Source: Caballeronia sp. NK8
Lineage (GTDB): Bacteria > Pseudomonadota > Gammaproteobacteria > Burkholderiales > Burkholderiaceae
Direction of reading: 5' to 3'
Length of the DNA stretch: 64,000 nucleotides
Assembly: GCF_018408855.1 (NCBI RefSeq)
Contig: NZ_AP024322.1
Span: 62,001 to 126,000, forward strand
Part shown: one piece after another, positions 40,351-42,920 of the stretch
How the letters are laid out: each line of letters opens with the position of its first letter
Numbering within the stretch: the first letter of the stretch is position 1
Translations under genes and position numbers: made by a program
Notes under the pieces: generated by a model
Told to the model about the DNA's origin: nothing
Database searches by the model: none
The model's input: the letters and a program-made list of their open reading frames with translations, nothing else

Positions 40351-40552
40351 GAGATCTCCCGTGACCTCGTGGTCACACTGCGTTTCATTGTTGTTTGCGA
40401 ATGGCTGGGGCGCGGAGCAAGCGGCGCGCCCGGCGCGGCTAGATTAGCGAATGCCCGCGCCGCCGACAACGATTCGATCGGCATACGCTTATTCATGACA
40501 CTTTGCCTCGCGTGCGCGCGGCTTGCCGAAACCGGCCGCATCAGGCTAAACT

Positions 40553-40668
40553 TGCGCCGTCTTTGGGGAGTAGCCTTCCTTCGCGTGCGAAGGAGAACGC
40601 GTCAACATCCTCGGCCCTGCTGCCGTGGCGCGTTCGACCGGAACGGTTTGGCGAGACCATCGATGCGC
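40553..40668 (+). promoter_or_regulatory. yybP-ykoY (manganese) riboswitch
   Basis: The leader of the exchanger gene shows the hallmarks of this Mn2+-sensing RNA: GGGGAGTAGCC (40565-40575), a CCTTCGC/GCGAAGG hairpin, GTCAACATCCTCGG (40601-40614) and the 3' closing segment GGCGAGACC (40650-40658), whose AGAC pairs with GTCT at 40559-40562 to form P1. The expression platform would lie in the 150 bases before the ATG at 40817. The family activates Mn2+ export genes when Mn2+ is high. Confidence 0.85.
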
Positions 40669-40816
40669 TATGTCGTTCTTGGTCGGACGGCGCGTGGCGC
40701 ATCGTGGTTCGCTTGACGTCCGGCCGTGGAATCATCGTGTCCCCACAACTAAAACATCCTCCCCGTCTTTCGCGCACGCTTGCGCGCCCGTCGCATTCAT
40801 CGATGCGAGGTGCCGC

Positions 40817-41827
40817 ATGACGATGCTCTTTGTCGAACTCGCGCTGATGCTCGTGATCATTCTGATCGCGTCGGAGCTATTCACGAATGCGCTGGAACAT
40901 CTTGGCGAGCGGCTCGGCATTTCCGAAGGGGTGACCGGGTCGCTGTTCGCGGCAGTCGGCACGGCATTGCCGGAAACTACGGTGCCGATCATTGCGCTGC
41001 TTGGCGGCACGCCGAGCCGTGCGGTCAACGAGGAAATCGGCGTTGGCGCGATTCTCGGCGCGCCGCTGATGCTCGCGACGCTTTCCACTTGCCTGATGAC
41101 GTTCGCGATTCTCAAGTCGCGTGGTTTGAGCGGCAGGATCATGCCGGAACGTAGCGGATTCGTGCGCGATCTCAACTTCTTCCTGTTCGCGTTCCTGATT
41201 GCCTGTGCGGCGATGTTCGTGCCGCATCATGCGTGGCAGGTGCGCGCGTTGTTCGCGGCGGGGCTCGTCGCGCTTTATGTCGTCTACGTGATTTCGACGT
41301 TCAAGGCTTCGGCAAAGCTCGTCGAGGGCGGGCACGGGACGGAGGCGCCCGAGGCGTTGTTCGCGTCGCGCCTCGGTTTGAAGACCACGTTCGGCACGAT
41401 CATGCTGCAGTTTCTCGTCGGCATCGTGTTGCTGGTCGGCGGCGCGAAGGGGTTCATTCACGGCGTCGAGGGCGTGTCACATGCGCTCGGAATTTCGGCG
41501 CTGTTGCTGTCGCTCATCATCATTCCGATTGCGACGGAATTGCCCGAGAAGGTGAACAGCATTCTGTGGGCGCGCAGAGGGAAGGACACGCTGGCGTTCG
41601 GGAATATCACCGGGGCGATGGTGTTTCAGGGCACGCTGTTGCCGGGTATCGGCATCATGTTGACGCCTTGGGAGCCGCGGGTCGAAGTGCTGACGGGCGT
41701 GTTGATCACGCTAGCGGCGGCGGCGTGGCTGAGATTCAATGCGAAGCCGAATGGCGTCGTGCTCTGGGCGTTGCTCGGGAATGGCGTGTTGTATGCGGCT
41801 TATCTCGTGTTGACGCTTGGGCGGTGA
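40817..41827 (+). CDS. CaCA-family cation exchanger, probable Mn2+/Ca2+ exporter
   Basis: A 336-residue inner-membrane protein with two homologous halves of about five helices. The alpha repeats contain GTALPETTVP near residue 51 and PIATELPEKVNS near 235, the acidic ion-binding motifs of Na+/Ca2+ exchangers. A basic loop separates the halves. GAGG lies just before the ATG. The Mn2+ riboswitch in its leader argues that it expels Mn2+ (or Mn2+ and Ca2+) rather than being a housekeeping Ca2+ exchanger; this is inference. Confidence 0.88.
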   Translation: MTMLFVELALMLVIILIASELFTNALEHLGERLGISEGVTGSLFAAVGTALPETTVPIIALLGGTPSRAVNEEIGVGAILGAPLMLATLSTCLMTFAILKSRGLSGRIMPERSGFVRDLNFFLFAFLIACAAMFVPHHAWQVRALFAAGLVALYVVYVISTFKASAKLVEGGHGTEAPEALFASRLGLKTTFGTIMLQFLVGIVLLVGGAKGFIHGVEGVSHALGISALLLSLIIIPIATELPEKVNSILWARRGKDTLAFGNITGAMVFQGTLLPGIGIMLTPWEPRVEVLTGVLITLAAAAWLRFNAKPNGVVLWALLGNGVLYAAYLVLTLGR

Positions 41828-41902
41828 GGGCGAGCGTTGAAGGCGCATCGTGGAGGATGCGTTTTCGGGTTTTTCGCTTCGGGTCGTGCGGCTATGATCG
41901 GA

Positions 41903-42053
41903 GGTGCTCCGCGTGCACTGAGATAGATCCGGAAAGCGGTTTACCGACTCCACCCGATCGGCGGTTCCTCCACGTGTGCGGAGATAGATCCGGCAGCATT
42001 GTCCCCACCGGCACCAGCGCTCCGTTACCTCCGCGTGCGCGGAGTTCGGGCAG
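41903..42053. CRISPR. Degenerate CRISPR-like mini-array, type I-E spacing
   Basis: Three 29-base repeats start at 41903, 41964 and 42025, exactly 61 bases apart, separated by two 32-base non-repeated spacers (41932-41963 and 41993-42024). This 29+32 geometry is that of type I-E arrays. Repeats 1 and 2 share 23 of 29 bases and both end GATAGATCCG; 2 and 3 share 20 of 29. Repeat 3 holds a perfect CTCCGC-GTGC-GCGGAG hairpin like the central stem of I-E repeats. There is no cas gene or fourth repeat in phase, so it would be a decayed remnant. Confidence 0.55.
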
Positions 42054-42121
42054 GGCGACGTGTATGGATTTGTATATATCGGTGTCGCCGCGACTGCAAA
42101 CTAGTTCCCATGTGAATTTTC

Positions 42122-42138
42122 TTCCCGCTTACCGGGAA
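42122..42138. promoter_or_regulatory. Inverted repeat, candidate operator of the HigBA pair
   Basis: TTCCCG and CGGGAA arms with a 5-base centre, directly upstream of a TATTCT minus-10-like box (42143-42148) and 20 bases before the toxin ATG. HigA-type antitoxins repress their own operon through such palindromes. Confidence 0.45.
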
Positions 42139-42157
42139 ACGGTGTATTCTGAATTTT

Positions 42158-42436
42158 ATGATCCAGTCATTCCTGAGCGCCGAGACCCAAGCCTTGTTCG
42201 AGGGACGCGTCGTTCGCCGGTTCGTGAACATCCGCGCCGTCGCCGAGCGCAAGCTTTTGCTACTCGACAGCGCTGCGACGCTCGACTTTCTGCGCTCGCC
42301 CCCGGGTAATCGACTCGAGGCGCTGCGCGGTAATCGCGCCGGGCAGCACAGCATCCGCATCAACGATCAATGGCGCGTTTGCTTTGTCTGGACTGACCAG
42401 GGACCGACGAGCGTCGAAATCGTCGACTACCACTGA
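42158..42436 (+). CDS. higB: HigB-family toxin (RelE/ParE fold)
   Basis: A 92-residue toxin of the host-inhibition-of-growth family, a ribosome-dependent mRNA endonuclease in studied members. Diagnostic segments are AERKLLLLDSAATLDFLRSPPGNRLEALRG and the C-terminal QWRVCFVWTDQGPTSVEIVDYH. The toxin-first order and the XRE antitoxin 31 bases downstream fit HigBA. Activity cannot be judged from sequence. Confidence 0.93.
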   Translation: MIQSFLSAETQALFEGRVVRRFVNIRAVAERKLLLLDSAATLDFLRSPPGNRLEALRGNRAGQHSIRINDQWRVCFVWTDQGPTSVEIVDYH

Positions 42437-42467
42437 AAGCTGAATCCCGAAGTAAGGAGAAACTGAG

Positions 42468-42782
42468 ATGGCCCGCTTCCCCAACGGCATGCGCCCGATC
42501 CATCCGGGCGAAGTCCTGCGCGAGGACTTTCTCGCGCCGCTTGACATGAGCGTGAACGCACTTGCGGGCGCGTTGCATGTGAGTCCGAACCGGATGAATG
42601 AGATCGTGCGCGAAGAGCGCGGCGTGACGCCTGATACTGCCCTACGGCTCGCGCGTTACTTCGGCGGCGACGCTCAGTCGTGGCTGAACATACAGCAGGC
42701 GTACGACTTGAAGCTCGCCGAGCAGGAGAACGGCGCGCGTATTGCTCAGGAGATCGCACCGCGCGAGGCAGAGCATACGTAA
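42468..42782 (+). CDS. higA: HigA-family antitoxin (XRE helix-turn-helix)
   Basis: A 104-residue antitoxin and autorepressor. It opens with the HPGEVLREDFLAPLDMSVNAL signature of the HigA group, then a Cro/XRE helix-turn-helix (LAGALHVSPNRMNEIVREERGVTPDTALRLARYFG, positions about 28-62) and SWLNIQQAYDLKLAE. A ribosome site (AAGGAG) lies upstream. It follows higB as in typical HigBA operons. Confidence 0.94.
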   Translation: MARFPNGMRPIHPGEVLREDFLAPLDMSVNALAGALHVSPNRMNEIVREERGVTPDTALRLARYFGGDAQSWLNIQQAYDLKLAEQENGARIAQEIAPREAEHT

Positions 42783-42807
42783 GGGTCCTAAGCCCCCCGT
42801 AGTCCCC

Positions 42808-42836
42808 CAAAACAAAATGCCCGCCAAGGCGGGCAT
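42808..42836 (-). terminator. Intrinsic terminator of the fliC/fliD/fliT region
   Basis: ATGCCCGC/GCGGGCAT stem on the minus strand followed by a TTTTGTTTT tail, 85 bases past the fliT-like stop. Confidence 0.75.
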
Positions 42837-42920
42837 CGAAGAGCGAAGCAGCGCACCGCGAAAACCGGCGCGTTGTTCTTGTTGTTCTTATAAAGGTTAT
42901 CGGCGCGAAAAAAGAAAACT

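What the first reader, a model, noticed from the sequence alone, without database searches (positions are those of the whole stretch)
41903..42053. Relic type I-E-like CRISPR mini-array between an exchanger gene and higBA
Three repeats of 29 bases recur at exactly 61 bases, with two 32-base unique spacers, the geometry of type I-E arrays. Repeats 1 and 2 agree at 23 of 29 positions, 2 and 3 at 20 of 29, and the third has a perfect 6-base hairpin around GTGC. All three keep the CTCC(A/G)CGTG core or close variants. No cas genes are visible, so this would be a solitary, decaying array, and its spacers would be a fossil record of an old invader. The spacing is seen directly; the CRISPR identity is inference.
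Basis: partly seen in the sequence, partly recalled or inferred. Interest (0 to 1): 0.75.

Follow-up and report, generated by a model that had tools for sequence, protein, structure and literature searches.

The report
Fossil CRISPR array without cas genes
A short stretch of this Caballeronia chromosome is the worn-out remnant of a bacterial immune memory (a CRISPR array) whose protein machinery was not found in this genome; it is real but of an ordinary kind.

Summary
Window 41902-42052 holds three 29-nt repeats at exact 61-nt spacing with two 32-nt spacers. A repeat model trained only on other genomes ranks these three as the top three sites of the 64-kb window; no simulated triple came near. 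The repeat is the type I-E repeat of Caballeronia, found in arrays flanking I-E cas genes in C. pedi. A leader is still recognisable before repeat 1. At the same intergenic site C. turbans has 14 repeats, two unnamed relatives 7 and 1, and C. pedi the same decayed 3-repeat array with the same two spacers; no array was seen there in 51 of 56 genomes. In the window's genome no Cas1, Cse1, Cse2 or Cas7e match was found, and the place of C. pedi's cas locus holds 1.7 kb with a transporter gene instead. The processing hairpin is predicted lost in repeat 1, weakened in repeat 2, kept in repeat 3. On average the array differs more from C. pedi than its surroundings do. No credible protospacer was found. 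Best reading: an inert satellite array of a lost I-E system.

The parts
41871..41903 (+). remnant CRISPR leader; its TATGAT (41893-41898) is shared with 11 of 12 other satellite-array leaders compared
41902..41930 (+). repeat 1, degenerate (22 of 28 to consensus); repeat hairpin not predicted
41931..41962 (+). spacer 1 (32 nt), no credible protospacer; 6 of 32 positions differ in C. pedi
41963..41991 (+). repeat 2, best preserved (26 of 28 to consensus); hairpin weakened by an A.C mismatch
41992..42023 (+). spacer 2 (32 nt), identical in C. pedi apart from one added base at its end; no credible protospacer
42024..42052 (+). repeat 3, leader-distal: hairpin intact, 3' part degenerate (22 of 28 to consensus)
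40820..41827 (+). upstream gene: Na+/Ca2+ exchanger family protein, found in 56 of 58 genus genomes
   Evidence: PF01699
42158..42436 (+). higB toxin gene of a type II toxin-antitoxin pair, downstream of the array
   Evidence: PF05015; in the stretches examined found only in this genome and C. pedi, 2 of 56
42468..42782 (+). higA antitoxin gene
   Evidence: TIGR02607
42816..42837 (-). terminator-like hairpin; in the 15 array-free relatives printed it follows closely on the exchanger stop
   Evidence: sequences printed

Best explanation
A relic type I-E CRISPR satellite array. An ancestor in Caballeronia carried a leader-plus-array cassette between the exchanger gene and the downstream terminator hairpin, served in trans by the genus' I-E Cas proteins. 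In this lineage the array shrank to three repeats, a higBA pair came to lie at its leader-distal end, and the cas operon with its two arrays is missing from the main locus. Without Cas6e and Cascade, and with the hairpin of repeat 1 lost and that of repeat 2 weakened, it should yield no guide RNAs, take up no spacers and give no immunity; it persists as decaying non-coding DNA. Shown: repeat kinship, geometry, leader resemblance, sharing with C. pedi, no cas operon at the expected locus, hairpin decay (predicted), higher average divergence. Inferred: that it is functionally inert, that it was once longer, and the order of events.
For: The repeat model from other genomes finds these three sites first. 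Arrays with this repeat flank I-E cas genes in C. pedi. Leader resemblance. The same site holds 14, 7, 3, 3 and 1 repeats in five genomes. Both spacers are shared only with C. pedi among 58 genomes. In this 9.2-Mb, 7-contig genome no Cas1, Cse2 or Cse1 family match and no match to C. pedi Cas7e, which was found in the three control relatives of the same search. Both flanks of C. pedi's cas locus are present at 97% identity with 1.69 kb and a transporter gene between them, and no listed match falls on the cas genes. R1 and R2 fold at -5.9 and -6.1 kcal/mol against -14.1 for the consensus. 14 of 151 array positions differ from C. pedi against 208 of 6,749 in the rest of the compared stretch (my addition).
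Against: Decay is uneven: spacer 2 with repeat 2 differs from C. pedi at 1 of 61 positions and the leader at 0 of 31, and some 100-base windows inside genes differ as much as the array (10 to 12 per 100 at 41100, 41300 and 45300). No protospacer proves that the spacers came from invaders. The Cse1 and Cse2 models rang in only 2 of 14 control genomes (not E. coli), and the Pfam Cas1 model matches the I-E Cas1 of this genus only weakly (about 22-25 bits a piece), so those three negatives are weak alone. Cas3, Cas5e, Cas6e and Cas2 were not searched by family here, and one search scored 40 of 492 candidates. A replicon missing from the assembly cannot be excluded.
Confidence: 0.95

Rival explanations
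1. A CreA-like guide: a minimal CRISPR with degenerate repeats kept to repress the neighbouring toxin-antitoxin genes through Cascade, as in CreTA modules.
For: Degenerate repeats beside a toxin-antitoxin pair. Repeat 1 keeps most of the 5' handle and repeat 3 keeps the hairpin but not the handle (by eye), which resembles the pattern described for the first and second CreTA repeats (PMC9458426: outline with abstract and section 13 read). C. pedi shares the array and has open frames for Cas3 to Cas6e. A 2-repeat array of C. temeraria also ends beside a higA gene.
Against: No Cascade gene found here. The spacers match the 428 bases after R3 (higB promoter, higB, start of higA) no better than shuffled spacers do (longest exact 6-7 nt, shuffled means 6.4-6.7). 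The repeat 1 hairpin is not predicted. Spacer 1 is the most changed part against C. pedi (6 of 32). HigA relatives were found in 2 of 21 fetched stretches around arrays, HigB in 1 (the window itself not counted, L001 and L019 overlap, some stretches only 3 kb).
Confidence: 0.03
2. A chance or non-CRISPR tandem repeat, or a regulatory repeat of the higBA promoter.
For: Only three imperfect copies and no cas genes in the neighbourhood.
Against: The same repeat forms long arrays with differing spacers next to I-E cas genes; chance is excluded for the triple; repeats lie at this site without higBA in three other genomes.
Confidence: 0.01
3. A young or failed seed: leader-plus-repeat cassettes insert anew at the same few intergenic sites in different lineages, and this one never was a long array.
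For: Occupancy of this site needs at least 3 changes on the exchanger tree. One relative has leader plus a single repeat. Six genomes have a satellite array behind one other gene, a threonylcarbamoyladenylate synthase, so sites recur.
Against: The leaders at this site in this genome, C. pedi, C. turbans and G015 share an upstream stretch (TTTTCGGGTTTTTC) not seen in the 62 bases shown for arrays at other sites, which suggests one ancestral insertion. Repeat decay points to age.
Confidence: 0.1

Closest known systems
Type I-E CRISPR arrays of Caballeronia (C. pedi, C. turbans, C. temeraria, C. glebae and others)
   Same: repeat sequence, 29/32 geometry, orientation, leader resemblance
   Different: here only three degenerate repeats, hairpins lost or weakened in two, no cas genes found in the genome
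Satellite array of C. turbans LMG 29316 at the same intergenic site (L033)
   Same: site, leader, repeat
   Different: 14 repeats, most near-identical, in a genome that has cas genes; no higBA found in the 8 kb fetched
Orphan (isolated) CRISPR arrays in general
   Same: array without cas genes; isolated arrays are reported as a sizeable class (PMC5294841, outline with abstract read)
   Different: here the cas-bearing relative and the cas-free expected locus can be pointed to
CreTA (CRISPR-regulated toxin-antitoxin)
   Same: minimal degenerate array beside a toxin-antitoxin pair
   Different: no Cascade found, no guide match to the neighbouring genes, protein toxin (HigB) instead of an RNA toxin

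Membership tests
Type I-E CRISPR array (as a relic) | 28-29 nt repeats at regular spacing with 32-33 nt unique spacers | tested here: met
   3 x 29 nt, period 61, two unlike 32-nt spacers
Type I-E CRISPR array (as a relic) | repeat homologous to repeats of arrays linked to I-E cas genes | tested here: met
   genes between the C. pedi arrays named Cse1, Cse2, Cas7, Cas5e, Cas6e, Cas1e
Type I-E CRISPR array (as a relic) | leader upstream of the first repeat | tested here: met
   sequence resemblance only; promoter activity not shown
Type I-E CRISPR array (as a relic) | spacers derived from mobile elements | tested here: inconclusive
   no credible match in phages, plasmids, IMG/VR patterns or genus genomes
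Functional type I-E CRISPR-Cas system | cas genes in the genome | tested here: not met
   no Cas1, Cse2, Cse1 family match, no Cas7e with relatives as positive control; cas operon absent at the expected locus
Functional type I-E CRISPR-Cas system | repeats fold into the Cas6e hairpin | tested here: not met
   as predicted: kept in R3, weakened in R2, lost in R1
CreTA | degenerate minimal CRISPR repeats | tested here: met
CreTA | spacer with partial match to the toxin promoter | tested here: not met
   no better than shuffled spacers
CreTA | resident Cascade | tested here: not met
CreTA | small toxic RNA creT | not testable with these tools
   needs expression data

The most novel reading that the evidence does not exclude
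In the common ancestor with C. pedi the degenerate mini-array gave a CreA-like guide tied to the higBA pair beside it, so that losing Cascade would have cost the cell; the present copy would be the fossil of a type I-E CRISPR-guarded protein toxin-antitoxin.
Probability: 0.03. Interest if true: 0.6.

Novelty: new member of a known kind. Interest (0 to 1): 0.25.

Why it matters
It gives a clear comparative example of how a I-E system disappears: the cas locus is absent from one species while a near relative still has it, and one orthologous site carries 14, 7, 3, 3 and 1 repeats in different genomes. Useful for studying array erosion and the recurrent sites of satellite arrays; it does not change the picture of CRISPR biology.

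Tried and rejected
Whole 271-base query against phages (no match) and plasmids (6 records; one is a repeat in Caballeronia sp. M1242, the rest short matches at E 0.8 judged chance). Spacer searches: S1 no phage match, best plasmid E 0.7; S2 best phage E 0.9 and best plasmid E 0.02, 25 of 27 bases in an ABC transporter gene of three Thioclava plasmids, rejected as chance (20 of 101 plasmid records were listed). IMG/VR exact patterns: a 28-mer and an 18-mer of S2 gave 0; a 17-mer degenerate core of S1 gave 26 contigs, which in a local BLAST extended to at most 20 nt and were judged chance. Spacer patterns with up to 3 mismatches in 58 genus genomes hit only this genome and C. pedi. A CreA-like guide onto higBA was tested and found no support. 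A second repeat-like site of this genome (G000:C1:1768274) is a hairpin between sucB and the dihydrolipoyl dehydrogenase gene that recurs, with varying tails, in the 20 relatives' stretches fetched, so it is probably not a CRISPR remnant. No strict sigma-70 promoter in 41800-42900, so promoter activity of the leader is unproven.

Full report
The observation. Other arrays place the repeat one base earlier: R1 41902-41930, R2 41963-41991, R3 42024-42052, with spacers 41931-41962 and 41992-42023. In 200 first-order Markov sequences, both strands, the best single site was 9.8 and the best period-61 triple -89, against 64.6 observed. A model-free comparison over periods 40-90 also ranks this triple first in the window (63 against 50), and 100 simulations at period 61 reached at most 50.

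What the repeat is. A DNA search of 58 genus genomes gave matches in 23. Not all are arrays: for example the listed rows of G020, G041 and G022 match only the end of the exchanger gene, and that of G050 lies outside the repeats. Many others are runs of a 28-29 nt unit, GGTTCCTCCGCGTGYGCGGAGATAGACC(C), at 61 nt. Contig lengths identify G023 as Caballeronia pedi LMG 29323, G054 as C. turbans LMG 29316 and G052 as C. temeraria LMG 29319; an exact-pattern scan of the GTDB species genomes returned 23 stretches, titled Caballeronia, Burkholderia turbans or Burkholderia peredens (both now placed in Caballeronia, recalled), and one Bordetella genomosp. 13 (records very near the window may be left out). 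In C. pedi two such arrays flank open frames recognised as Cas3, Cse1, Cse2, Cas7, Cas5e, Cas6e and Cas1e, so the repeat belongs to subtype I-E. The C. pedi Cas1 match contains one in-frame TAG.

The leader. Upstream of R1 the bases TTTTCGCTTCGGGTCGTGCGGCTATGATCGGAG match a leader consensus read from other satellite arrays at 24 of 33 positions; in the 51 array-free stretches the best match was 21 or less. TATGAT occurs at the same place in 11 of 12 other satellite-array leaders compared, the exception being the C61 array of C. turbans. This fixes the direction: leader at the exchanger side, R3 leader-distal. No strict sigma-70 promoter was found in 41800-42900.

The site in relatives. The exchanger gene (PF01699) is found in 56 of 58 genus genomes. 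I examined about 2-3 kb downstream in all 56. Repeats follow the gene in 5: this genome and C. pedi (3 each), C. turbans (14), G015 (7; 6 at the stricter cut) and G045 (leader plus one repeat). Two further genomes (G001, G028) had a single weak match (19 of 29) inside the downstream genes, which I did not count. In the 15 array-free genomes whose sequence I printed, a GCCCGCC...GGCGGGC-type hairpin follows closely on the exchanger stop. On a tree of 55 exchanger genes (the partial gene of G044 was left out) occupancy needs at least 3 changes. Shared leader-upstream bases in four of the five favour one old insertion with many losses, but repeated seeding is not excluded. A second recurrent site exists: six genomes (G052, G017, G057, G010, G006, G054) have a satellite array behind a threonylcarbamoyladenylate synthase gene.

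The same relic in C. pedi. Both spacers occur, within 3 mismatches, only in this genome and C. pedi among 58 (the S1 pattern was written to allow both versions). Across 41902-42052, 14 of 151 positions differ, against 208 of 6,749 in the rest of the compared stretch (sums are mine). The change is uneven: R1 3 of 29, S1 6 of 32, R2 1 of 29, S2 0 of 32, R3 4 of 29, leader 0 of 31, higA 1 of 315, exchanger 59 of 1008, and a few gene windows reach 10-12 per 100. So the array as a whole is not being held constant, though its second half is little changed.

No cas genes found. Searches of the window's genome (9.2 Mb, 7 contigs) with the Cas1, Cse2 and Cse1 families found nothing; the controls rang in 9, 2 and 2 of 14 genomes, so the last two models are narrow, and the Cas1 model is weak on this genus' I-E Cas1. 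The stronger test is C. pedi Cas7e: no match here, while C. pedi itself, C. turbans and C. temeraria matched at 92-100%. Across the genus Cas1 is found in 22 of 58 (types not separated). Both flanks of the 19-kb C. pedi cas region lie in this genome at 97% identity, at C2:34450-38310 and C2:40000-44459; none of the 61 listed matches falls on the cas genes, and those on the arrays are all at the window site (40 of 492 candidates were scored). Between the flanks lie 1.69 kb with a major-facilitator transporter gene. A transporter stretch 83% identical lies next to CRISPR arrays in Caballeronia sp. M1242, so transporter and CRISPR locus look like old neighbours and loss of the CRISPR block here is the likelier history (inference).

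Why it should be inert. The consensus repeat folds at -14.1 kcal/mol into the expected hairpin. R3 keeps it (-11.1), R2 keeps a weakened one (-6.1), R1 folds otherwise (-5.9). Without Cas6e and Cascade no guide could be made or used in this strain. This is inference from known I-E biology (recalled), not a measurement.

The toxin-antitoxin neighbour. higB (PF05015) and higA (TIGR02607) lie downstream, co-directional, in this genome and C. pedi only, among the 56 stretches. A reading as a CRISPR-regulated toxin-antitoxin was considered seriously, because such modules have degenerate minimal CRISPRs (PMC9458426: outline with abstract and section 13 read; PMC8501985: passages read). The spacers show no unusual match to the 428 bases after R3, and HigA relatives were found in 2 of 21 fetched stretches around arrays. 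A palindrome TTCCCGCTTACCGGGAA at 42122-42138 before higB looks like an ordinary HigA operator (seen by eye, not tested).

Literature. Seven searches listed no paper whose title or abstract start describes this array; the lists were capped (for example 15 of the 44 papers holding both Caballeronia and CRISPR were shown) and the papers were not read further, so it may be in print. Isolated CRISPR arrays are a known class (PMC5294841, outline with abstract).

Verdict. A real, ordinary relic: new member of a known kind, in a good comparative setting.

Noticed in passing
window 40550-40725: A yybP-ykoY manganese riboswitch (69.5 bits, over its cut-off) lies just upstream of the exchanger gene, which suggests that this Na+/Ca2+-family exchanger handles manganese.
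   Followed up: no
G000:C2:38311-39999 (L242): Where C. pedi has a 10.7-kb cas operon with two arrays, this genome has 1.69 kb with a transporter gene that in Caballeronia sp. M1242 lies beside CRISPR arrays.
   Followed up: partly
G000:C1:1768274-1768296 (L127 around 5275, - strand): A solitary sequence very like the CRISPR repeat (27.5 bits) sits between sucB and the dihydrolipoyl dehydrogenase gene; a hairpin there recurs in relatives with differing tails, so it may be chance resemblance.
   Followed up: partly
L035:12449-12745: The cas1 match of C. pedi contains an in-frame TAG near its start; its Cas3 to Cas6e frames are open.
   Followed up: no
L038:3139-3686: A 2-repeat satellite array of C. 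temeraria behind a threonylcarbamoyladenylate synthase gene also ends next to a (convergent) higA gene.
   Followed up: partly
L038, L039, L040, L203, L204, L206: Six genomes have a satellite I-E array behind the same threonylcarbamoyladenylate synthase gene: a second recurrent site for orphan arrays in the genus.
   Followed up: partly
L168:6022-6110: Two exact copies of the Caballeronia I-E repeat in Bordetella genomosp. 13, hinting at transfer between genera.
   Followed up: no
L073:186-247 (G045): Leader plus a single repeat at the same site: either the last stage of array loss or a seed of a new array.
   Followed up: partly
window 42468-42782: higA differs from C. pedi at only 1 of 315 positions although the exchanger gene differs at 59 of 1008; recent exchange or strong constraint.
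   Followed up: no
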